Positions 2,043 to 54,142 of a DNA stretch of 64,000 bases are shown here, in pieces. Source of the stretch: Hyaloraphidium curvatum. Taxonomy: Eukaryota; Monoblepharomycota; Hyaloraphidiomycetes; Hyaloraphidiales; Hyaloraphidiaceae. The translations under genes were made by a program, and so were the position numbers. The stretch is taken from the NCBI GenBank assembly GCA_025558095.1, contig JAIVFI010000020.1:186001-250000 (forward strand), in the 5' to 3' direction. The notes under the pieces were generated by a model. It did not search any database. It was not told the DNA's origin and was given only the letters and a program-made list of their open reading frames with translations. Positions within the stretch are counted from its first letter, which is position 1. Each line of letters starts with the position of its first letter.

Positions 2043-4211
2043 TCATTGAAGAGCGTTGAATGCAGCTTGAATAGATTTCTCTTTCGAAATTGGGTTAATC
2101 ATCGACAAGGAGACCTCATATACGTGCAGCAGGTCATGAAGCTTGGGAGTGGTTGCCTGGTCTCCAAGCTTTTCCGCCTTCAGAATAGCGTTAAGGTTGC
2201 TCGAAAACTGCGTCGCAAATAGTTCCTCTTTGTATATGGTCTGGCTGTTTGTCTCGTCTGGTTTCATGTATGAGTCTACCAGCTCGGCAGCAGCAACCGC
2301 CAGGATATCCCGTGCAGGCCCATTGTCCGAGATCCTGATGATCGCATTCGATAAGGTGACTGGAGGAGCATCTGAAGGTCGCTTCTTCAAAACGCGGCGA
2401 ATGAAGTCAACGAATATGAAGTAGAATAGGAAGCGAGACTGCCGCCGCCACGAGTATTGTGATCCTCTGCCAAACTTCGTCCGATCATCCTCCGAAATCC
2501 CTTGCACCTTGTAAGCAGCGTAAAGATCGTTAGCATCGATGGGGTTTGGTCCTTCAGTGACACGCTGGAAGACTGGTCCGCCTGGTGCAAAGGTCCTTGT
2601 TTGCCCTCTGAAAGCCAGACCAGGCTGGGAAAGCCATCCAGCCGTATAAACCTTAATGAGGTCGTAGAGATTGCAAAACTGCTTGAACTGTTGTGAATCA
2701 GGCTTCTGGGCCTGCAAAGCGCGTTGGGAGTCCCATCCGCCACGTTGAACTTCCAAGAACACGCCATGTGCAGCCATAGCCTCCGCCCAGACGTCCCGTC
2801 GTTCCACAAGGGCAAGAAAGTCTTTCTCCCGGACCGCATTCTGGGAATTGGTATACCGAGTAATGTTCATAACCTCCTCCCCATTCAACGGGTCGACCTT
2901 GGCAATCTTGACGATGATGTTTCCTTTGTCCAACCTGGTCTTCCACTCAGCTATAGAAGGAGGATCCTCACCGGCTCCGCTCTTCAAGCGAGGAACGCAG
3001 ACGTCATAAATGGTACGTGTGGTCTGACATCCATTGACCACGTATGGGTCAGACAGAATCACCTTGTCATCGTTGACCGCGTAGTCAACAACGACAATGG
3101 TCACGCCATTGTTGTATAGACCGAAGTTCTCCGGAGCCTCCGCCAACGTTTTCCGCATTCCACTGTTGACCCGCCCCTTGAAAGCCAGGAAACGTCGAAC
3201 GTTCTTGTCGTACAGTTGGTCAAGGTCTCCAGTCATGTCCTTGAAAGCACACAGGAAGTCAAACACGTTGCGCAGTGGAACAACGCCGACGATCTGGTTG
3301 GAAGCTACACCTTCGGAAGCGACAAGATTGCTCCGCCCGACCTTCAGGTCTACTTTGCGCGTGGGAAGAATGAGCTTCCGGGCATGGTCCGCCAGCAGAT
3401 CGTCCCAAATAGTCTTCAGAGACACTTCGATCACCTCAACAATGTTCTTCCTCAATCTCTCCTGGAAAAGCCGTTCCACGTCCGAAAGCCACAGCTTCTC
3501 ATTTGCTCCCATTGGGTCGAGCACCCCGAAGACGACCACGATCTTGTCCAGATCAGTTGCACCCCGAATGAAGTTGCCAATTCGTTCGCGAAAGGATTGA
3601 GCCATATGAGAGAGGTTGCCAGCAAAATGGTGGTCGGGGTCGATGGTGTCAAGCATTTTGCCGGCTTCGGCCAAAATGGAAGGGCGACCCTGGAATGCCG
3701 TGTTGTACTTCCCCTGAATGAGATACCAGGTGTTTCCAACGCGGCGATTTCTTCCAGCGTCGTCCTCTGCAGCACCGGCCACCGGGTCCCTTTCCTGATC
3801 GGCTCCCATCTCAAGCTGCGCAACGTCTATGCCCCCGTCACCAGCTCCTTGGAGATAGATGGTGTCCTCCGAGTCATCGTTGATCTCGAGCCATTGCTTT
3901 GCCAGCTTTATGGCGAACCTGTTGCCCTTGGTGGTTGTTGACGGGTTGTCTCTCTCGACATCTTCAATCCACTTCTGCTTGAACTTTTCGAACGTGAGGT
4001 CGGCCGGATTTCCGGCCTGAGGAATCGGCAAATCGATAGGAGGCGGGGGGTCGATCTGGTCTGCCGCGTTGGCGGGGACCGCGGCCATCTTCGCCGGGCA
4101 GTTCTTGCTCCTATTCGTGTGCCCAAGTGCTTGGTCCAACCAGCCTCTACTCTTGCAGGCCGTACAAGACGGTTGGCTCCGCTGCTTCTTCGATGGCGGT
4201 GGATCCCCCAT
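2043..4211 (-). CDS. AIPR-family protein with N-terminal zinc-knuckle-like motif
   Basis: Intronless ORF of about 722 residues. The C-terminal two thirds carries the hallmarks of the AIPR family (abortive infection phage resistance; PF10592): a segment reading FGLYNNGVTIV, then DPYVVNGCQTT, NITRYTNSQNAV and a following Arg-rich helix. In bacteria these proteins occur in phage-defence and mobile-element settings and are thought to be nucleic-acid acting; the biochemistry is poorly defined. The first 40 residues add a Cys/His cluster (CTACKSRGWLDQALGHTNRS then KNC), perhaps a eukaryotic zinc knuckle. The ATG at 4211 puts this cluster near the N terminus; an in-frame ATG at 4298 is possible. There are no introns although most neighbours have them. 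Base composition is near that of the window, so any transfer would be old. It sits among ordinary fungal-type genes on the same strand. Confidence 0.75.
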   Translation of the reverse strand: MGDPPPSKKQRSQPSCTACKSRGWLDQALGHTNRSKNCPAKMAAVPANAADQIDPPPPIDLPIPQAGNPADLTFEKFKQKWIEDVERDNPSTTTKGNRFAIKLAKQWLEINDDSEDTIYLQGAGDGGIDVAQLEMGADQERDPVAGAAEDDAGRNRRVGNTWYLIQGKYNTAFQGRPSILAEAGKMLDTIDPDHHFAGNLSHMAQSFRERIGNFIRGATDLDKIVVVFGVLDPMGANEKLWLSDVERLFQERLRKNIVEVIEVSLKTIWDDLLADHARKLILPTRKVDLKVGRSNLVASEGVASNQIVGVVPLRNVFDFLCAFKDMTGDLDQLYDKNVRRFLAFKGRVNSGMRKTLAEAPENFGLYNNGVTIVVVDYAVNDDKVILSDPYVVNGCQTTRTIYDVCVPRLKSGAGEDPPSIAEWKTRLDKGNIIVKIAKVDPLNGEEVMNITRYTNSQNAVREKDFLALVERRDVWAEAMAAHGVFLEVQRGGWDSQRALQAQKPDSQQFKQFCNLYDLIKVYTAGWLSQPGLAFRGQTRTFAPGGPVFQRVTEGPNPIDANDLYAAYKVQGISEDDRTKFGRGSQYSWRRQSRFLFYFIFVDFIRRVLKKRPSDAPPVTLSNAIIRISDNGPARDILAVAAAELVDSYMKPDETNSQTIYKEELFATQFSSNLNAILKAEKLGDQATTPKLHDLLHVYEVSLSMINPISKEKSIQAAFNALQ

Positions 4212-4368
4212 GTTGCGAACTGCAGAGCGCGGGAGAGAAGCGCCGTTAGAGAGACCTACGGTCCACGGCGCCGGCGATCCGCAAGGAGAAGAGCTCACCT
4301 GAAGAAACTTGGTCGGCCGTCAAGGAGCCTGATTGCGTTCGTGCGGTCCTGTTTCGCGTGGTGTGCGC

Positions 4369-6667: not shown

Positions 6668-8413
6668 CTAGGCCGGCGGCCGCGCGTAGCCCGCAACTGC
6701 GATGACCTTCTCCAGCTCCGCGACCACGACCTCGAAGCCCGGCCTGGGCTGTTCCGCCGGCGCCTTGCTGCCGTCGTACTGCCAGCACCGCCCGATCAGG
6801 TCCCACAAGCCGTTCGGCGTGTCCGGCTGTTGCGCCGGGCGGCCTCCAGCGACGAGACGGGCATGGATCTAGCGCACTGTGCGTCAGATTCGCGCGCGAA
6901 AAGAGGCCGGGCGACCCACCTCCGGCTCCGAGATCCGAGTGTTGGGCTGCTGACCGGGGAAGTACGGTTCGTAGCCCTTGGCTGTGGCCTGCCAAAGCAT
7001 CATGCCGAAAGACCACACGTCCGCGGGTCTGTGCTTCCTGTAGATCAAGAGGTTGAGGGACTCGGGCGGGTTGAAGTACATGGTGCCCGCGCCGTAGTCG
7101 GTGGAGGAAGACGCTCCGTGCGACGGGCCCTGTGACAGATCGCGGTACCGGGCGGTGCCAAAGTCGGCGATCTTGGCGCGGTTGCCGACGATGAGCACGT
7201 TGAGCGGCTTCAGGTCGCCGTGGATGACGCGGCAGGAATGAAGGTGGCGCATCCCGTGGGCCACGTCGAGGAGGTAGTAGAGGGCGTACGAGTAGTAGAG
7301 GTTGATGTCGGTCAGCAGGCGCCTCGACCGGAAGCGGCCCTTGGGATCGTGGTACAAGTCGATCGCCATGTCCCTGTCGGCCAGCTCGGATGCAATCTTG
7401 AGTTCAAGGCCGGTCTCGTTGAATCCATAAAGAGATAGAATGCACTTGTGCTGCACGGCAGCCCAGACCCGGGCCTCTCTGACAAAGGCCGCCACGTTGG
7501 CTGGCGTTGGGTTCTTTCGCACCTTGACGGCCGCGGGCACGATTTTCCCGTCCTCAAGTCTAAAGGTCCCGCGCCAGACGTCCCCAAAAGTGCCACCGCC
7601 CAGGAGGGTGGACCTGTCGTTGGGATCGTAGGCGATCCTGGAGGATTCCACTCGCAGTGGTTCCGGGGCTGCGTCAAAGACGGCCCGACGGATCTCGACG
7701 CGGAGCTGCTGGTCCGGGATAAGGTCCACGGGCGCTGCACCGGTGGCGTCTGCCAGCTTGAAGTCGATGCCCTCCGCATCGACCAAAAGGCGGAGCACGG
7801 CGCCAGCACCGGCCCGGCAGGCGAGGTTGAACGCCGTGCAGCCGTTGTCGTCCTGGGCGTTCGGCACGCAAAGGTCCGGCCTCGACAGCAGAAGCTCGAC
7901 GAGAGCCACGTCGTTGTTTGCGCAAGCAATCATCAGCCCCGTCCGCCCGCCTGCATCGCGGTGCGCGAATGTCTTGGGATCCAATCGCGCCGCGCCGTCG
8001 TACAGCGCTTGCACGACGTCGGTGCCCGCGGCGTCCCCGCGCGCGCAGGCGGCGGTGAATGCGTTGTGTCCGTCCGCGGCGGGGCGACCGGGATCGCGCA
8101 GCTCGCGGCGGCTGCGCAGGATCCTCCCGACGGCGCCGGCCTGGCCCGCGCGGCACGCGACGAGCAGCGGCGTCTCGCCGGCCGCGTTCGGCGCGTTGAT
8201 CGGCGCGCCGCCGCGGAGCAGCCCTTCGAGCAGGTACTCGTGGCCCAGCGCCGCCGCAGCGGCCGCCGCCGTGTTGCCGTCTACGTCCGTAAACGCGCGC
8301 AGCCGCTCCGCGAACCCGCGCAGCAACCTGTCCGTCGCGTCCTGCCACTCGGCAGACCCGTCCATGCGGCAGGCGCGCTCAAAGAGCGCATCGAACGCGT
8401 CCGATGCCGCCAT
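6668..8413 (-). CDS. ankyrin-repeat protein kinase (TKL-like)
   Basis: Two exons (8413-6920 and 6868-6668) around a 51-bp GTGGGT...TAG intron in phase 0, about 564 residues. The N-terminal half holds about five ankyrin-type repeats (motifs such as GETPLLVACRAG, GHNAFTAACARG, GRTGLMIACANN, GCTAFNLACRAG). The C-terminal half is a complete kinase domain: Gly loop LGGGTFGDVWRG, AAVKV lysine, catalytic loop VIHGDLKPLNVLI (HGD in place of HRD), IADFGTAR, and PADVWSFGMMLWQ. Exon 2 supplies the end of the C-lobe (LIGRCWQYD followed by a C-terminal helix), as in tyrosine-kinase-like kinases. Ankyrin-TKL fusions usually work in signalling, with the repeats choosing partners; the target here is unknown. 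The HGD replacement leaves the catalytic Asp intact, so activity is plausible. Confidence 0.85.
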
Positions 8414-8831
8414 TCCGTGGGGTCTGACTCCGTTTGATGTGATGATGATGATCAGGGACCCGACGCCGGCCGGCCCGACAGTCAAGCAGCGTGACGACCG
8501 GGACGAGACCAACCCACGAGCCGTTCGCTGACGATGCACCCATTTGACCATCAGCTCTAGGAAGTCGATAAATCCGACTTGCATGTACAGCTGCTTTGCT
8601 GAAAGGTCGTTCTTCCGGCCAACCGCCCGGCGGCGGTCGATCCCGTCGCCCCAGTCCTCACGTTTAGAATCGACATTCGGGACACAATTTGCCAGACTGA
8701 TGGCGGCGGCGGTGGATCTGCTCGTACCGCAGTAAGTTCTATTCGTCCCTTGCATCCCATGACATGTGCAAGGGAGGATGCGATTGCTTCTGCCGTAAGA
8801 GGCCCATCGAATGAATAGCTGTGCCAGAATG

Positions 8832-10068
8832 TCAGATCGCGTCCTCGATCTCGTGCTCTTCGTCACCGCCGCGCAAACACTTCACCCAGTCGTCGCGCCA
8901 TTCGTCGTGATCGAACACGGTGACGCTGTCCCAAACCTTGGCCCACTCATTGCACTCCCTGATGAATGCCCCCTTGGCATAGCTCCAATCACTCTCCTCG
9001 TCCATCCATTCCAACACGTGCGAGGAGCTCAAAGCGCCGCCCGGATAAATCAAAACATCCCAGAAAGGTTCGATGTAGATGTCGGTCTCTCCGACCGCCG
9101 CCTCAATGGCATCGAACGCATCCAGCGGCAGCTCTCCGAGAAAGCACTCCAGAAGGTCGACCCTCTTCAGTCCTTTCCACTCGCAGCCGGCCATGATCGA
9201 TGTCTGTACCGAATGAAGAAACAGGGTCTCAAGAGCAGGAAAGGCGGCCCGAATGCGGCGCACATCGTTGGGTTTGGGGGCCTCGGCGGCGGATTCGAAG
9301 CACGTAACCTCGAGCATACGAACGTTTTCGAAAACGTACGCAGTCCAGCCATCGAGCTCGCCGGTGTTGATGGTAAGGCGATGGAGGTTGGCCGCAACGG
9401 CAGAAAAAGCCTGGATCTCGCGGGGCCACTTCAGGTTGCTTCGGGCCCAGTGGCTGAATTCGACCGTAGACTGTAATTCGAGATCCTTGAAAGTGCCGCC
9501 GAGCTTATCGAGGTGCTGTACCAGAGTCCTCTCTGTCTGCATTGTGTTGATCCTTATCCCGTAGAAAACGTACGAGACGGAAACGCGCTCTAACGCATTT
9601 GCCGTGTCGATACCGCGGAGAAAGTCCGAGAAGCCGGCGAAGCTGACAATCTCAATTTTGAGGCTCACGAGGACGGGCCGACGCCGCGCAGGAGAGCTTC
9701 GAGGAAAGGGTCCGCCGAGCCGATTTCGATGCTGAGTTCCAAAACGTGCTGCAGCTTGTTCAGCTTCAGCTCGTCCGACAGAAGCCCTCGTCACGTGGCC
9801 GAAGGCTTCCCGGGGTGCGGCACGATGTGGAGCTTCCGAACCACAACAGGCGGCGGCACGTCGAAAGCAGCTTGAGAAGCGACTTCTTCTTGCCTCCTTC
9901 ATCATTGTCGCAGAGCACTCGTTCCATGATGAGCAGGAGCACTTCGGGCGGCAGACTCGCGAGCGAGAGGTCCTCGGGGTTTTCGTCGGGGGCGAGCCGT
10001 CCGCGCAGCTGCAGGTCCGAATCGGCCGCGGGGTCCACCGAGGCCGTTCGTCCGCTTCGCTGGGTCAT
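8832..10068 (-). pseudogene. F-box/LRR-like gene with broken reading frame
   Basis: The 5' part (ATG at 10068) reads an F-box-like segment, LASLPPEVLLLIMERVLCD then SLLKLLSTCRRL. Coding character then jumps: about 9835-9690 the third frame gives an LRR-like stretch (DELKLNKLQHVLELSIEIG), and from about 9675 to the stop at 8832 another frame gives roughly 280 residues of hydrophobic, LRR-like sequence ending in an acidic tail. No GT-AG intron of realistic size joins the frames, and a TGA interrupts the middle one. Either two frameshifts have killed the gene or the assembly contains indels. F-box proteins select targets for SCF ubiquitin ligases. Similar decay is seen at 19.2-20.5 kb. Confidence 0.5.
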
Positions 10069-15150: not shown

Positions 15151-17862
15151 ATGGCGGGCCACCGCGTCGTGCCGCTGGGCGGCACGCTCGTGGTGGTGCT
15201 TGCCCTCGTGATCCTCGCGGTCTCGCCACCGTGGGTGGGTTCCCGGCTGCCCGCCTGGCGCGCCGTGTCATTGGGCCCCGTCGGCGCGAACGCTCTCTCG
15301 GTGCCGCCTCTCGCCGCCGGATCGAGGCTGGGGAAACGCCAGGATGATGACGATGACGACGACGATGAGGAGGAGGACGGAGATGACCAGGACGACGACG
15401 TGAGTCGCCGTGCCTTCCACCTCGCATGGGCGACATCTAACTCGGGCTTCCGCGCCTCGATGGCTCGCCCCACCGTCCCAACAGGACGACTACCGAGCGC
15501 GCCGCCTCCAGAGGCGCATCTTCGGGAAGAAGAAGAGCACGACGGGCACGACCGGGACGGGCAAGACCGCCGACGTCGGCTGCAAGCCGAAGGGCCTGCT
15601 CTCCAAGAAGCTCCCCAACCCCCTGCCGGCCGGATGTACCCCCGACAAGCTTGCGGCGTACTGCAAGACCAAGAACGGCGAGACCGACCCCGCCTGTGCC
15701 TCGATCCTGGGCTGCATCCCGAAGGGCTTGATTTCGAAGAAGCTTCCGAACCCGCTTCCGGCGACCTGTACGCCTGACAAACTAAAGGCGTACTGCGCAA
15801 AACCGAAGAGCAAGAAGGACCCTGCCTGCGCCACTGGTTGCACGCCCCAGGGCTTGCTCAAGAAGAAGCTGCCGAACCCGCTGCCCAAGACGTGCACTCC
15901 TGACCTGCTCGAGAAGTATTGCGCCGGAAAGAACGGCCCGGGCGACCCTGCTTGTGCGAAGATCATCGGCTGCGTGCCCAAGGGCCTCCTCAAGAAGAAG
16001 CTCCCCAACCCGTTGCCGCCGGAATGTACTGAGGAGAAACTCGCCAAATATTGCGCGGTTGCCAAGAACAAGAAGAACGATCCGGCCTGTTTCACCGGCT
16101 GCACGCCGACCGGCACGCTGAAGAAGAAGCTGCCGAAGCCGCTGCCCAAGACGTGCACGCCGGACTTGCTGCAAAAGTATTGTGAAACGGACAAGAATGG
16201 CCCCGGGGACCCCGCGTGTGCCGAGATCATTGGTTGCGTGCCCAAGGGCCTTCTCAAGAAGAAGCTACCGAACCCACTACCTCCCAGCTGCACGCCGGCG
16301 AAGCTGGAAAAGTACTGTTCGAACGCGAAGAACAAGAAGAACGACCCTGCGTGCGCTACTGGTTGCACCCCCACGGGCTTGCTTAAGAAGAAGCTGCCGA
16401 AGCCTCTGCCCAAGACGTGCACCCCTGAGCTGTTGGCGGAGTACTGCAAGACCAAGAACGGCCCTGGGGACCCCGCATGCGCCGATCTCCTTGGTTGCGT
16501 CCCGAAGGGGTTGCTCAAGAAGAAGCTCCCGAAACCGCTCCCACCAAGCTGCACCCCCGAGAAGCTCGCGCAGTATTGCGAGAATCCGAAGAACAAGAAG
16601 AACGACCCGGCCTGCTTCACGGGCTGCACGCCGACCGGCACACTGAAGAAGAAGCTGCCGACCCCGCTCCCTGAATCATGCACGCCTGCTTTGTTGGAGG
16701 AGTACTGTAAGACCAAGAACGGTCCCGGCGACCCGGCGTGCAAGGAGATCCTCGGTTGCGTGCCCAAGGGCCTCCTGACGAAGAAGCTCCCCAACCCCCT
16801 GCCGCCCGAGTGTACTGCCGAAAAACTGGCCCTCTATTGTGCAACACCGAACGGGGCGAAGGATCCGGCATGCGGGAATGCGGACAATTGCGTCCCGGAA
16901 GAGAATCCGGTGGGTGATCGCGACAAGTGACGCTCGCAAACTACAGCCTAATCCCTACCTTCTACCCTCGTCTGTGCAGGAAACGGGCGTCATGCAACTT
17001 CCCCTGACGCTTCCTGTCGAGTGTGACAAAGCATCCCTCGGCGCTTACTGCCGCACGATCGACAAGAGTGTATGTGGGCCAGGGCCAGAAGGTCAGACGT
17101 TTCTCACCGGCATCCCTCCCAGACCGAGCCCAAGTGTGCAAGCGGTCTCACCAAGGTCGTCGGCAAGGTCAAGAACGCCTACGCGGCAGCCAACGCGCAG
17201 ATCGCGGAGCTCGGGGTCATGATCGGGCTAGAGTCGTACACGGCCGTCCAGTTTGCGATCGATTTCGGACCGATCCCTGCTCAGGCGAAGGGCGACACGG
17301 CTCTGATGGGTCGGCTCGTGGGTTTATAGTGCCCTCTGGGTGCCTCACTCCGATGCTAAACGTCTCGCGACACAGGCCGTGGCCAAGCTCAAGCAGATTG
17401 CGCAGAGCTCCGAACAACTTTCGAGCGCTAGTACGTCATTGGCAACGGCTATCGCGACGTGGACTCAACGCCCTTGCAGTTGCCATGGTCAAGAGCATCC
17501 TTGGTCTCCCTGCAGGAGGCCTCGACGGCGAGGAGGAAGTCCCGCCTGATGAGACCCCGCCCGAGGATGAAACCCCGCCCGAGGATGAAACCCCGCCCGA
17601 GGATGAAACCCCGCCCGAGGATGAAACCCCGCCCGAAGATGAAACCCCGGCCGGCGATGAAACCCCGCCGCCGGAAGATGATGATCAGCCTCCTCCAGGC
17701 GAAGAGTCGGATGAGGAGCCGCCCGCGGACGAGGAGCCTACTGATGAGGAGCCGCCCGCGGACGAGGAGCCTACGGAGGAGGAGCCGCCCGCGGACGAGG
17801 ACACACCACCTGAAGACGAGGAAGGGGGAGGCGACGAAGAGCCCGCTGAGGAGGAGCGCTAA
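15151..17862 (+). CDS. secreted cysteine-rich tandem-repeat protein with acidic C-terminal tail
   Basis: Six predicted exons: 15151-15399, 15485-16909, 16980-17069, 17123-17317, 17376-17430, 17480-17862; 798 residues, all intron phases consistent. Residues 1-35 hold a hydrophobic signal or anchor segment. Then comes a dibasic GKRQ followed by a run of eight Asp (a Kex2-like processing site is possible). The long second exon carries ten repeats of about 43 residues (see separate entry), each with four Cys and a basic KKKLPNPLP core. An eleventh, degenerate repeat spans exons 2-4. Exons 4-5 encode an Ala/Lys helical region, and exon 6 an acidic Pro-rich tail with about six copies of TPPEDE. The protein is thus basic and Cys-rich in the middle, strongly acidic at both ends. 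I do not recognise the family; a structural wall or matrix role, or cation binding, is conjecture. Confidence 0.75.
15578..16878 (+). repeat. ten tandem ~130-bp repeats encoding alternating four-Cys units
   Basis: Each unit reads roughly G-C-x-P-x-G-x-L-x-K-K-L-P-x-P-L-P-x-x-C-T then LxxYC and DPAC. Units come in two alternating types: one ends NGPGDPAC plus a hydrophobic triplet, the other KNKKNDPAC plus a Thr, giving a higher-order period of about 260 bp through units 3-9. Amino-acid identity between like types is very high while third codon positions differ, so the array is not a recent unequal-crossover product. The first two units and the tenth are less regular. Confidence 0.9.
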
Positions 17863-42288: not shown

Positions 42289-45142
42289 TAGGGTGCCTGG
42301 CAAGCTCAAGAAATACCGTGCCCACGGGCATGCCCATCACCTGATCCGGTGCCCATGGGCACCATATGGGCATGCCCATCATGTACTTGTAGAAGAGAGT
42401 CTATTAGGAACGTGCACGATGCTGCGCTAAGAGTGCTTCCAAGCTTATCTGTGCCTCCCCCTCCTCAACAAAAGCCCGCAGCGGTTGAGCAGCAGCCAAT
42501 TGGGCTTCCTCAGCAGTGCGCAGTTGATTAATGTCGAGGAAACTCTCCAAGACATAGGGCCCTGTCGCGGCGCGGAAGACGGAAGTTGTCCCAAATCCCA
42601 CCTCGAACTCCTCCTCCTCCGCATCAATGCGAGGCCAAAGTGCGTGGAAAACATCTCGGTGCTGCTCGTTTTCCGGGTCCAGGGCCCGGATAGGAGCTCC
42701 CGAGCCCAAGGTCAAGGAATCCAGGACGTCGGCAAGGTTGTCATCGGTTCCGTGGGTTCTCCAGGGCTTTTCCTCCGCAGATTGCACCCTTGGCTTTAAG
42801 GTCTTCATCTCCTGCTTCAATGCGCTCTTGACCAGCCCTATTTCCTTCAACGTTGCGGAATTCATTCGATTCCGCGAGTCTGTCTTTGCAAGGCCCAAAC
42901 TGGAAAACACGCGCTCGGTCGCGGCACTGTGCGGCGCAATGCTAAGCACCATGAGCGCAAACTCGCGCACAAAGACGAGTTCCGTAGTGCCCAAGCCCCA
43001 GGTCTCCCAGAACTCCCTTGCCGTCCGAACCTGGCCGTCGATCCCGCTGAACATGTTGCGCCCGAAGAAATAGTCATCCAGCTGGGCAAGGACCGACAAG
43101 CTGGCCTCCTGTCGGAACTTCCAAGCAAGCAGCAGCTTGCCAATCTCCCATTCGAGCCACCGCTTCTTGTCCCTGCCGTCGACCTGGCACCCAGTCACAG
43201 AAAACTTCCGGTGAACAGGGGAAAGGTGGAGAGCAACAAGGTAGATCGCATGATCAAACTCCTTGACTCTGGCATTTAACGACAACTTAGCCAGAGCGAA
43301 TGTTTCCCTGGCACCCTCCACAACGGGACTAACACCACGCCAGGTCCGAGCAACCATCGAATACTCGATCAGTACGTCTGCCAGGGTCGCGTCCGAATGC
43401 TCAAGGCGGCCTAGGGCATCCACAATCGGCCTCACGATCTGGATCAGCTCCGCATTGTGGGCAAAGTGATACGGGTCCTTCACCACATCCAGCACCCGAT
43501 CTGGAACGTCTGTCGGCCGTACACCGGGTTCCAGGCCATCGTGCGCGTGTTGCGGGCTGAGGAGAAGACGGAACCACGGCTGATGTGCGTCAATGCCCAA
43601 GCAGACCGTAATGAGAGAGTACCAGCGCGAGTCGGTATGCGTCGCGAGGGAGTGTGCAACATCGTGCTTGCCGGCCCAAATCTGGGCCAAGCGGCGCCAC
43701 ATAGGCGCCTTGTGAATCCAATTGACGAGAGTGAGGTTCTTTTTGATCACGGAGGTGGCCCAGTCGTGCTTCACAATGTCCTTGACGAGCAGGTTGAGGT
43801 TGTGGAGAACACACCGAATGCCGATGATGTGGGGGTGCTCCGTGCTCACCAGCCGACGAAGCTTCTTCATGACGGAAGGACTGTCCGTGCAGAACGCGTT
43901 CACGGGGCCCGGGGCCGCGAGATTGAGGCCAATTGAGCGGCACGACATGTTCACCTTCTCGTGCAAAAGCTCCGCGTTGTGGCGATCCTGAGTGACATCC
44001 CAGAGGTCCAACAAACGCTCCATGCCCGGTGTAACGGCTACCATCGCGTAGATTGAGGCCCCAGACGAATCTTCCCATCCGTCAAGCTGCAGAGTCCACG
44101 ACTTTGCGGTCCCACAAAGCACGACCAACTTCTGGGCTTCGTCCCTAGTGATCTGGGTCAGGATACCACCAATAGAGTGGCGTGTCAGGGGCCGGTACGC
44201 CGGGCTCAGGATCCCCAGAGCTTGCAGCAAATATGGATTCGACGCGAATCGAAACGGGACGTTGCCGGTCACAAAAGCTTTGGTGATCGCAAAATCCACC
44301 GCACTTGCAGTGGCAGCAGACAGAGGGGGATGGAAATGAGCCAGGAGAGTTCCAGCGCCAGATGCGGAGCCCGCCGCAGAACACGCCGAGGGCGACGTCG
44401 ACGACGCGTCAGAAAACGCGTTCCTCTTCCTGCGTTTGCTCTGCGGCGCTGCAGCAGACTTTTTCTTCTGCTCCTCGTCGTACTGATTGAGGCGCCGAAG
44501 GTACGCGACGCGTTCTTCCCCCACGGACTTGCACTTGGAAACGATGTGCTGCTCCAACCGTTCTGGCCGGCCATCCATTTCCTCCGAGCAGAAAGTGCAC
44601 TTGGCCGTGACGCGTTTGCCCCTGTTCACCCCGTCCTTCCTTTTGACGAGGAAGCCCGCCCATCGCGGGTCGAGATCCGGTGCCGGGCGCACCCAATCGC
44701 CCCGCTCCACGGAAGGTCGCAAGGAGGCAGAGCCGCGCTCGGATCCGCTCTCCTCCTCGTCGCTGCGTCCTTCATTGACTGCGCTGATGCTGTCATTGGG
44801 CGCGAGTTCGTCCTCCATGTTCAGGACTTCGCAAAGCCGGTGAACTCGCGACGAACCCCCCACCCGCCGACCGCGACACCCTCGCAGAAAAGGAACGGAG
44901 ACCGCTCTACGGATGAATGATTTCATTGAATCACTATATCAATTCATCCACGTTTGCTTGGCGTGAGCGATAGATTCCGCGTCCTGGCCCTGGCTCCTGA
45001 CCCCTTAGGCCGGCTCCCCTGCCCGCTCGACGGGCTCGCTGTTGGGCACCCGGTGGGCAGCGCATCCGCAATTGGTGCCCATGGGCATGCCATGGGCATG
45101 CCCACTTTGGGCATGCCCAACTTTTTGGTGCCAGGCACCCTA
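42289..45142 (-). mobile_element. hAT-superfamily DNA transposon, apparently full length
   Basis: 2,854 bp bounded by perfect 14-bp terminal inverted repeats: TAGGGTGCCTGGCA at 42289-42302 and its reverse complement at 45129-45142. The TAGGG start is typical of hAT ends. Both subterminal regions carry several copies of the palindromic gggcatgccca/gtgcccatgggcac type, likely transposase-binding sites. It encloses one intact transposase ORF. No exact 8-bp target-site duplication abuts the repeats (tgcgggcg left, ctggcagc right), although a related agctgcgggcg/agccgcgggcc pair lies close by; the insertion may be old or the ends slightly misplaced. Confidence 0.8.
42404..44818 (-). CDS. hAT transposase (BED zinc finger, RNase H-like core, C-terminal dimerisation region)
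   Basis: Uninterrupted ORF, about 804 residues from the ATG at 44818; an ATG at 44926 would add 36 Arg-rich residues. An N-terminal BED-type finger is visible (CTFCSEEMDGRPERLEQHIV then SKC). The catalytic region includes SWTLQLDGWEDSSGASIYAM (first Asp of the DDE triad region) and AFCTDSPSVMKKLRRLV (second Asp), with RCVLHNLNLLVKDIV after it. The C-terminal hAT dimerisation motif is SIAPHSAATERVFSSLGLAK. There is no stop or frameshift, so the enzyme may still work. It lies on the minus strand inside the matching terminal repeats. Confidence 0.88.
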   Translation of the reverse strand: MEDELAPNDSISAVNEGRSDEEESGSERGSASLRPSVERGDWVRPAPDLDPRWAGFLVKRKDGVNRGKRVTAKCTFCSEEMDGRPERLEQHIVSKCKSVGEERVAYLRRLNQYDEEQKKKSAAAPQSKRRKRNAFSDASSTSPSACSAAGSASGAGTLLAHFHPPLSAATASAVDFAITKAFVTGNVPFRFASNPYLLQALGILSPAYRPLTRHSIGGILTQITRDEAQKLVVLCGTAKSWTLQLDGWEDSSGASIYAMVAVTPGMERLLDLWDVTQDRHNAELLHEKVNMSCRSIGLNLAAPGPVNAFCTDSPSVMKKLRRLVSTEHPHIIGIRCVLHNLNLLVKDIVKHDWATSVIKKNLTLVNWIHKAPMWRRLAQIWAGKHDVAHSLATHTDSRWYSLITVCLGIDAHQPWFRLLLSPQHAHDGLEPGVRPTDVPDRVLDVVKDPYHFAHNAELIQIVRPIVDALGRLEHSDATLADVLIEYSMVARTWRGVSPVVEGARETFALAKLSLNARVKEFDHAIYLVALHLSPVHRKFSVTGCQVDGRDKKRWLEWEIGKLLLAWKFRQEASLSVLAQLDDYFFGRNMFSGIDGQVRTAREFWETWGLGTTELVFVREFALMVLSIAPHSAATERVFSSLGLAKTDSRNRMNSATLKEIGLVKSALKQEMKTLKPRVQSAEEKPWRTHGTDDNLADVLDSLTLGSGAPIRALDPENEQHRDVFHALWPRIDAEEEEFEVGFGTTSVFRAATGPYVLESFLDINQLRTAEEAQLAAAQPLRAFVEEGEAQISLEALLAQHRARS

Positions 45143-52018: not shown

Positions 52019-52450
52019 TCTTCCCGGGGGGCGATGGAACGCGGGTAAACCAAAGATCTGTTCGTGTAAACGTCCGAGCAATGCTCGATGAGGGCGCTGG
52101 CGCGGTTGAGGTTCTTCCGGGAGGGTCGGTGGCACTTTAGGAGAGAGGTAAGTGAGCGACTCCCGCCCGCGGATCCCCAAGCAAACTCCGGCGCCGTTCC
52201 AACGCGGTAGCCAGAGTGCCACCGCTCCGCCACGTCTCTCCGCGCATTGGCCCGCGTGCGTCTCGCGACCCCGCGCGGCCGCCGCATGGCCGCGAGGGTC
52301 TGCTGACCCGGCCCGCGGTGCCGACTCACAAACATTGGAAAGGGCGCCAGGGGGGCGGGGGTCGCGCGCGGATCTGAGCGACCGGACTCCGGCGAAAAGG
52401 ATCAAGCAGACACCGCCGAAGGCCGACCACTGCTGAAGGCCGGGCACGCC

Positions 52451-54142
52451 ATGGCAGGGGCCGCGATTCCCAGCTCGGACTTGGAGGACTGGCGCGAAAT
52501 CGGCGTGGGCTCCTTCGGCCGCGTGTACCGCGTCAACTACCTCGGCACGGACGTGGCATGCAAGGAGTTCGCCGCCGGCACGGACGCGGACCGCAGGCTG
52601 CTCGAGCGCGAGATCGAGCTGCTGCGCGAGTGCCGCCACCCCAACGTGGTGCAGTTCATCGGCGTCTCGGACCACGGCGGGGCCACGGTCATGGTCACCG
52701 AGTTTGTTCCGAACGGGTCCCTCAGGTCGCTGCTTGAGAACCCCGCCGCCGACATACCCTGGCGCCTGCGTGTGGCTTTCGCCCTGGACGTGGCCCGCGG
52801 GGCGACGTACATGAGCAGCAGGGGCATGATCCACCGCGACATCAAGTCGGACAACCTCTTGCTCACGGAGAATCTGCGGGTCAAGATCGCTGACTTTGGC
52901 TTCTCACGCTTCCTCCCCACGACCACGGCCTCGCGCAACGAGCGTCTCTCGTACTGTGGCACCGATGCGACGATGGCACCGGAAATCATCCTCGGCCTGG
53001 ACTTTTTCGACGGGGCGGTGGACGTCTTTTCGTACGGGATCGTGCTCTGCGAGCTGGCCGCGCGCAGGACGGTCGAGCCGGGGGTGTTTGACCGGGTGAT
53101 CCCGGGCTTCGGAATCGACCCAGAGGAGATCAGGACGAGGGCGGCCGAGACCGGAATTGACGCCAGCGGAATTACGGCACCGGAAGCGTTCCTGGAGCTC
53201 GCGGCCCGGTGCACGGACGACGACCCGAAGAAGCGCCCGGCGTGGAAGCAAATCATCTTCCAGCTGGAGCAGGTCGAGAAGCAGCTCAAGCTCGGGGATC
53301 CGGACAACGTCGGGCTGCCCATGAACCGCTTCATGGACGCCGCTTCCTTCCTCTCGCTACTCGGCCCCTCGACGGCATCGCTGGACCTCCAGAGCCTTCG
53401 GTTGGCGCGGAGCAACCAGCCTTCGGCGCTCGAGCTCGGCGGCCTAGACGCAAAAGCGGTGCAGCTGATGCCGAGCCAGGAGACGCTTTCCGTTGACACT
53501 TCGTCGCTCCCGAACTCGAACTCGATCGGCGCGAGCCCGGTCGGCGAGATCAGGGACTCTTTCGAGACCGACAGCGCACGTTCGCCGGTCTCTGCCACCT
53601 TTTCCGCCTCGCCAACGACGCCTTCGCCTGGAAAGAAGCGGTCTTCACTCCCCGACATCCTGTCTCGCATGGTGACGGGCATGCGCGGATCCACCCATCG
53701 CGGGCTGGCGTCCGGATCGCCCGACAACAAGTCCCCGGACCGCACCCGCCCCTCCGTCTCCCGCGCCTCCTCCTCCCCACGTCTCTCTCCCATCCGCGCT
53801 CCGTCGAACAACCTCGTCCCCATCTCCGAAGCGCCCCCGCAGAGCCCCGGCACCCTCGTCGCGCACCGCTTCGCCCCACGCCTCAACATGGTCTCCAACC
53901 GGCGTTGCCAGGTCTGCGTCCAGCCTCTCGCGCTGATGCGCCGTGCGGTCGAATGCGACGGGTGCGGGTTCGTCGCGCACGCCGAGTGCGGGAGGGAGGC
54001 GCCGGCGACGTGCGGGCTTTCGCAGAGCGGGCTGCGCGCGGCGCTGGCGGAGCTGTCGGTGGTCGGGGCGCGGGCGGAGCAGCTCGAGGCGTCCGCGGGC
54101 GGTGACACGGGAGCACATGCCGAGGGTTCTTGGAACCAGTGA
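52451..54142 (+). CDS. TKL-like protein kinase with C-terminal C1-type zinc finger
   Basis: Single exon, 563 residues. Kinase domain at about residues 10-280: Gly loop IGVGSFGRVYRV, VACKEF lysine, catalytic loop MIHRDIKSDNLLL, IADFGFSR, CGTDATMAPEIILG activation end and VFSYGIVLCELA. The RCTDDDPKKRPAWKQI end is typical of tyrosine-kinase-like kinases. A Ser/Pro-rich linker follows. Near the C terminus a C1-like finger has the full ligand series: HRFAPRLNMVSNRRCQVC, then VECDGCGFVAHAECG and a final Cys. C1 fingers bind diacylglycerol/phorbol or act as docking modules; its aromatic rim is only partly conserved, so lipid binding is uncertain. Kinase plus C1 recalls RAF-type or LIM/TES-type TKL members, but with the order reversed compared with RAF. 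Confidence 0.85.
   Translation: MAGAAIPSSDLEDWREIGVGSFGRVYRVNYLGTDVACKEFAAGTDADRRLLEREIELLRECRHPNVVQFIGVSDHGGATVMVTEFVPNGSLRSLLENPAADIPWRLRVAFALDVARGATYMSSRGMIHRDIKSDNLLLTENLRVKIADFGFSRFLPTTTASRNERLSYCGTDATMAPEIILGLDFFDGAVDVFSYGIVLCELAARRTVEPGVFDRVIPGFGIDPEEIRTRAAETGIDASGITAPEAFLELAARCTDDDPKKRPAWKQIIFQLEQVEKQLKLGDPDNVGLPMNRFMDAASFLSLLGPSTASLDLQSLRLARSNQPSALELGGLDAKAVQLMPSQETLSVDTSSLPNSNSIGASPVGEIRDSFETDSARSPVSATFSASPTTPSPGKKRSSLPDILSRMVTGMRGSTHRGLASGSPDNKSPDRTRPSVSRASSSPRLSPIRAPSNNLVPISEAPPQSPGTLVAHRFAPRLNMVSNRRCQVCVQPLALMRRAVECDGCGFVAHAECGREAPATCGLSQSGLRAALAELSVVGARAEQLEASAGGDTGAHAEGSWNQ

What the first reader, a model, noticed from the sequence alone, without database searches (positions are those of the whole stretch)
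15151..17862. Undescribed-looking secreted protein of alternating four-Cys repeats between two acidic ends
Ten units of about 43 residues with invariant Cys spacing and a basic LP-x-PLP core alternate between two subtypes, flanked by an Asp run after a possible Kex2 site and a TPPEDE-repeat tail. I know no family with this pattern. Alternation of subtypes suggests dimers of repeats as the evolving unit. Opposite charges of core and ends suggest self-assembly or mineral/cation binding (conjecture).
Basis: partly seen in the sequence, partly recalled or inferred. Interest (0 to 1): 0.75.

Follow-up and report, generated by a model that had tools for sequence, protein, structure and literature searches.

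The report
Secreted fungal four-cysteine repeat protein
A fungus carries a small, apparently undescribed gene family for secreted-looking proteins built as a string of small cysteine-rich, lysine-rich units held between two strongly acidic ends; it is real and conserved, but what it binds or does has not been shown.

Summary
A six-exon gene (15151-17862, all introns GT-AG, 798 aa) encodes a signal peptide, a conserved [KR]R|Q site, an Asp run, a second dibasic cluster, ten four-Cys units, a divergent eleventh unit split over three exons, a conserved non-repeat domain and an acidic tail. It is not a singleton: the same genome has two full paralogs (C7, C19) with the same order of parts and matching intron positions, and a divergent one-unit relative (C26). 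Unit numbers are 11, 3, 5 and 1. Subtypes alternate in the window gene, where the DNA shows a 261-bp two-unit period. Units are old at synonymous sites but conserved in protein. No match in Pfam, NCBIfam, PDB (sequence or fold), viral contigs, GTDB genomes or plasmids. Best explanation: a secreted charge-block protein, a lysine-rich disulfide-braced core between acidic ends, possibly trimmed by Kex2, acting as a multivalent binder of anionic glycan or surface in the wall or matrix. Gene, family and architecture are shown; secretion, processing, folding and binding are inferred. Main gap: other fungal proteomes could not be searched, so how widespread or already catalogued the family is stays open.

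The parts
15151..15399 (+). exon 1: signal peptide, pro-segment, KR|Q dibasic site, most of the Asp/Glu run
   Evidence: ATG, GT donor at 15400; hydrophobic core (Kyte-Doolittle 3.7 at residue 14); KRQ/RRQ conserved in two paralogs
15485..16909 (+). exon 2: end of acidic run, second dibasic cluster (RARRLQRR), short linker, ten four-Cys units, first Cys of the eleventh
15578..15709 (+). unit 1 (end type)
15710..15835 (+). unit 2 (end type)
15836..15967 (+). unit 3 (odd subtype, KNGPGDPAC)
15968..16096 (+). unit 4 (even subtype, KNKKNDPAC)
16097..16231 (+). unit 5 (odd subtype)
16232..16360 (+). unit 6 (even subtype)
16361..16492 (+). unit 7 (odd subtype)
16493..16621 (+). unit 8 (even subtype)
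16622..16753 (+). unit 9 (odd subtype)
16754..16885 (+). unit 10 (end type)
16886..17137 (+). eleventh, divergent unit, split by two introns (NCVPEENP / ETGVMQLPLTLPVECDKASLGAYCRTIDKS / TEPKC)
   Evidence: 18.6 bits to the unit profile; same split in both full paralogs
16980..17069 (+). exon 3
17123..17317 (+). exon 4: last Cys and start of the conserved C-terminal domain (QIAELG.MIG...YT...FA.DFGPI)
17376..17430 (+). exon 5: rest of the C-terminal domain
17480..17862 (+). exon 6: end of the domain and acidic TPPEDE / EEPPADE tail, stop
   Evidence: tail net charge -55 in 111 aa; 18-bp and 33-bp DNA repeats

Best explanation
A secreted charge-block protein of a small fungal family. The signal peptide sends it out. 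A conserved [KR]R|Q site and a second dibasic cluster flank the Asp run, so a Kex2-type protease could free the acidic segment, which would act as a counter-charge pro-segment. The mature part is a string of small units, each with four cysteines forming its own two disulfides around a Pro-rich loop (LPxPLP) and a short helix (CTPxxLxxYC), followed by a conserved C-terminal domain and an acidic tail. The Lys-rich core acts as a multivalent binder of anionic glycan or cell surface in the wall or extracellular matrix; the acidic ends keep it soluble or let molecules associate end to core. Shown: gene, family, conserved order of parts, conserved cysteine spacing, conserved charge blocks. Inferred: secretion, Kex2 cleavage, intra-unit disulfides, binding, assembly.
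For: Six-exon model with GT-AG borders, repeated at matching alignment positions in paralogs on C7 and C19 (the C19 copy lacks one intron and has one extra). All four members start with a hydrophobic stretch. Charge blocks in A/B/C: acidic N segment -19/-18/-18, core +47/+36/+45, tail -55/-31/-46; C26 relative: core +19, tail -16. The ten units of A have 75 Lys and 0 Arg where five neighbouring reading frames have K/(K+R) 0.32. KR or RR occurs only at the first site and the second cluster in A, B and C. The Cys array starts with C1 and ends with C4 in A and B, and Cys totals are even, 44, 12 and 22, as expected if each unit pairs its own four. dN about 0.1-0.5 against dS near or above 1 between units. 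AlphaFold puts a helix at CTPxxLxxY in every unit of both models.
Against: No expression, secretion or binding data. Models are weak (pLDDT 70 and 68, pTM 0.47 and 0.44) and give no disulfide assignment. The C26 relative has five Cys after its signal peptide and lacks the Asp run and the C-terminal domain, so one Cys is unpaired there or its gene model is incomplete. The KKK of each unit is not in the paralogs. Fungal identity rests on chitin synthase and Zn-cluster matches, not on a species name.
Confidence: 0.4

Rival explanations
1. Precursor of an antimicrobial or antifungal protein: acidic segments neutralise a cationic cysteine-rich core until it is cut out by Kex2, as acidic pro-parts do in some defence peptides.
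For: Acid-base-acid order and dibasic sites conserved; cationic, Cys-rich core.
Against: The core is a long tandem array, not a single small domain, and no KR/RR lies between core and acidic tail in A, B or C, so the tail would stay attached.
Confidence: 0.2
2. Repeat-containing secreted effector or adhesin acting on a host or prey surface, comparable in role to Rsp3 or BAD-1.
For: Secreted-looking, hydrophilic acidic C terminus without the hydrophobic end of a GPI signal; unit number varies between paralogs (11, 3, 5, 1).
Against: Host and lifestyle unknown; units are old and under purifying selection, not fast changing.
Confidence: 0.18
3. Cation or mineral binder: the Asp run and PPEDE tail bind Ca2+ and the protein organises mineral or cross-links a wall.
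For: Both acidic ends conserved in three paralogs.
Against: No known Ca-binding family found; the basic core has no evident role in it.
Confidence: 0.12
4. KEP-type precursor: repeats are cut apart at KK sites into peptides of about 43 residues.
For: Each window unit holds KK before LP; the KEP survey counts KK among the recognition sites (PMC7329392).
Against: No KR or RR in the ten units, 0 Arg of 75 basic residues; in the paralogs the KK before LP is absent; a cut there would fall between C1 and C2 and could leave the pieces disulfide-bound.
Confidence: 0.1

Closest known systems
Blastomyces BAD-1 tandem-repeat adhesin (PMC3708853)
   Same: Fungal surface protein, many tandem units braced by disulfides, separate C-terminal domain
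   Different: BAD-1 units have two Cys and a WxxWxxW motif; here four Cys per unit and no Trp in the core
Ustilago maydis Rsp3 (PMC5923269)
   Same: Secreted repeat protein without GPI anchor, with a Cys-rich region needed for function
   Different: In Rsp3 the Cys region and the repeats are separate parts and the repeats are short and length-variable; no sequence comparison with Rsp3 was run here
Kex2-processed repeat proteins, KEPs (PMC7329392)
   Same: Signal peptide, tandem repeats, dibasic sites near the N terminus
   Different: Units here are not separated by KR or RR
Cationic Cys-rich antifungal proteins (PAF type; PMC5224997, abstract)
   Same: Secreted, cationic, Cys-rich
   Different: PAF is a single five-strand beta-barrel with three disulfides; here a tandem array with predicted short helices and no Pfam match

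Membership tests
BAD-1 type repeat | two Cys and WxxWxxW per unit | tested here: not met
   four Cys per unit, zero Trp in 436 core residues
KEP | signal peptide | tested here: inconclusive
   hydrophobic N terminus by Kyte-Doolittle in all members; no signal-peptide program on hand
KEP | repeats separated by Kex2 sites | tested here: not met
   no KR or RR in the repeat array; KK is present in the window gene, which the survey also counts, but not at that place in the paralogs
any Pfam or NCBIfam family | profile match above the curated cut-off | tested here: not met
   best is RRM_1 at 18.5 bits, below its cut-off of 20.7 and on a 13-residue stretch
any solved fold | sequence or Foldseek match | tested here: inconclusive
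   no credible sequence match, no fold match with E under 5, but the models are of low confidence
Rsp3 family | sequence similarity to Rsp3 | not tested
   no fungal protein collection on hand
PAF-type antifungal proteins | antifungal activity | not testable with these tools
   needs an assay

The most novel reading that the evidence does not exclude
A new disulfide-braced repeat module that builds extracellular charge-block polymers: oppositely charged ends and core drive assembly or coating, with length tuned by duplication of unit pairs.
Probability: 0.25. Interest if true: 0.7.

Novelty: new variant of a known kind. Interest (0 to 1): 0.45.

Why it matters
If right, it is a natural, genetically encoded block polymer with a Lys-rich, Cys-braced core and acidic ends, with a four-member series (1, 3, 5 and 11 units) in one genome that allows testing how unit number sets binding or assembly. 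It is also a clear case of a conserved, secreted-looking family that Pfam, NCBIfam and PDB do not cover.

Tried and rejected
Singleton or chance repeat: rejected by paralogs and shuffles. Downstream exons as separate genes: rejected, same exon order in the C7 and C19 copies. Antisense ORF 15493-16833 (447 aa): open frame opposite exon 2, not scanned further; regarded as a by-product of GC-rich codon use. Viral or prokaryotic origin: no match in viral contigs, GTDB genomes or plasmids. Segmental duplication with neighbours: the paralog loci share no reading frame with window 1-40000 other than this gene at E 1e-5. STE3 and 5.8S rRNA searches gave nothing, so the species was not placed; Hyaloraphidium was considered as the source and not confirmed. 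Literature searches gave comparators but no described family of this pattern.

Full report
Setting. The window is G000:C20:186001-250000 of a 31.9-Mb genome in 55 contigs. Chitin synthase (13 exon matches on four contigs, best E 5.4e-182) and 96 Zn-cluster matches make it a fungus; chlorophyll-binding proteins gave none. The species was not placed.

Observation. Exons 15151-15399, 15485-16909, 16980-17069, 17123-17317, 17376-17430 and 17480-17862 join in frame with GT-AG introns of 49-85 bp into 798 aa. Sixteen units of three paralogs keep 18 invariant positions: G1 C2 P4 G6 L12 P13 P15 L16 P17 C20 T21 L25 Y28 C29 D37 P38 A39 C40. The second-to-third Cys spacing is always 8; the first-to-second varies 16-20 and the third-to-fourth 10-12.

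Alternation. Identity at lag 2 is 0.77 (protein) and 0.72 (DNA) against 0.64 and 0.63 at lag 1; parity permutation p is 0.008 for both. Tandem Repeats Finder gives a 261-bp period, 3.8 copies, at 15812-16797, and a 132-bp period for units 1-2. In a tree of units, 3, 5, 7 and 9 form one clade (ultrafast bootstrap 97) and 4, 6 and 8 another (74); units 1, 2 and 10 stand apart. The four units of the C19 copy show no such pattern, its two closest units being neighbours (88% identical), though four units are too few for a formal test. Pair duplication therefore looks local to the window gene.

Family. A two-unit query finds C7:52694-52954 and C19:648008-648562; gene models there give 431 and 633 aa with the same parts in the same order. 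A query from the last units of the C19 copy adds C26:137107-137241, a three-exon gene of 196 aa with one unit, scoring 43.7 bits to the unit profile against at most 7.2 in 2000 shuffles. The split last unit scores 18.6, 12.7 and 10.1 bits in A, B and C. The C-terminal domain was found only in A, B and C.

Selection. Between units dN is about 0.1-0.5 and dS about 0.7 to saturated. C-terminal regions of A, B and C have dN/dS 0.36-0.44 with dS near 1. These are rough counting estimates on short, diverged sequences, but they point the same way: old and constrained.

Charge. The protein is acid-base-acid in the three full members and base-acid in the C26 relative. In A the basic charge sits largely in the units (75 Lys, 0 Arg), in B and C in a Lys-rich stretch before them. 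The property is conserved while its place shifts; this is the main argument for a charge-driven role, and it is an inference.

Processing. KRQ (A, B) or RRQ (C) precedes the Asp run and a second dibasic cluster follows it in all three; no further KR or RR lies in the units or before the tail. Kex2 cleavage after KR and RR is established knowledge for fungi; that it happens here is not shown.

Structure. Two AlphaFold jobs, on two units with nine rows and on four units with four rows, gave pLDDT 70 and 68 with a helix at the CTPxxLxxY segment of each unit. Foldseek found nothing for the first and only E above 5 for the second. This is too weak to call the fold new.

Known families. No match above cut-off in Pfam or NCBIfam, no credible match in PDB sequences, none in viral contigs, GTDB genomes or plasmids. 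Comparators read: Rsp3, KEPs, BAD-1. None shares the defining features that could be tested. Fungal proteomes at large could not be searched, so 'undescribed' here means 'not in the libraries searched'.

Verdict. A real, conserved, small family of secreted-looking repeat proteins with an unusual charge-block architecture; the mechanism is inferred only.

Noticed in passing
window 2046-4319, minus strand: Reading frame with a strong AIPR match (E 3.9e-39), a family best known from bacterial phage resistance, here in a fungal genome.
   Followed up: no
window 6887-8881 (minus) and 52307-54139 (plus): Tyrosine-kinase-like kinases, one with ankyrin repeats and one with a C1 domain.
   Followed up: no
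window 42407-44938, minus strand: Reading frame with DUF659 and a weak hAT dimerisation match, likely a hAT-type transposon.
   Followed up: no
L012 4344-4954: Reeler-domain protein (E 3.1e-6) directly downstream of the C19 paralog.
   Followed up: partly
L027 2952-4648: Secreted-looking reading frames with an HEMGHVLGLG metalloprotease-like motif just downstream of the C26 relative; no Pfam match in the pieces scanned.
   Followed up: partly
G000 C35, C26, C4, C16 and others: Several reading frames hold two Zn-cluster domains in tandem about 140-250 bp apart, for example C35:28125 and C35:28266.
   Followed up: no
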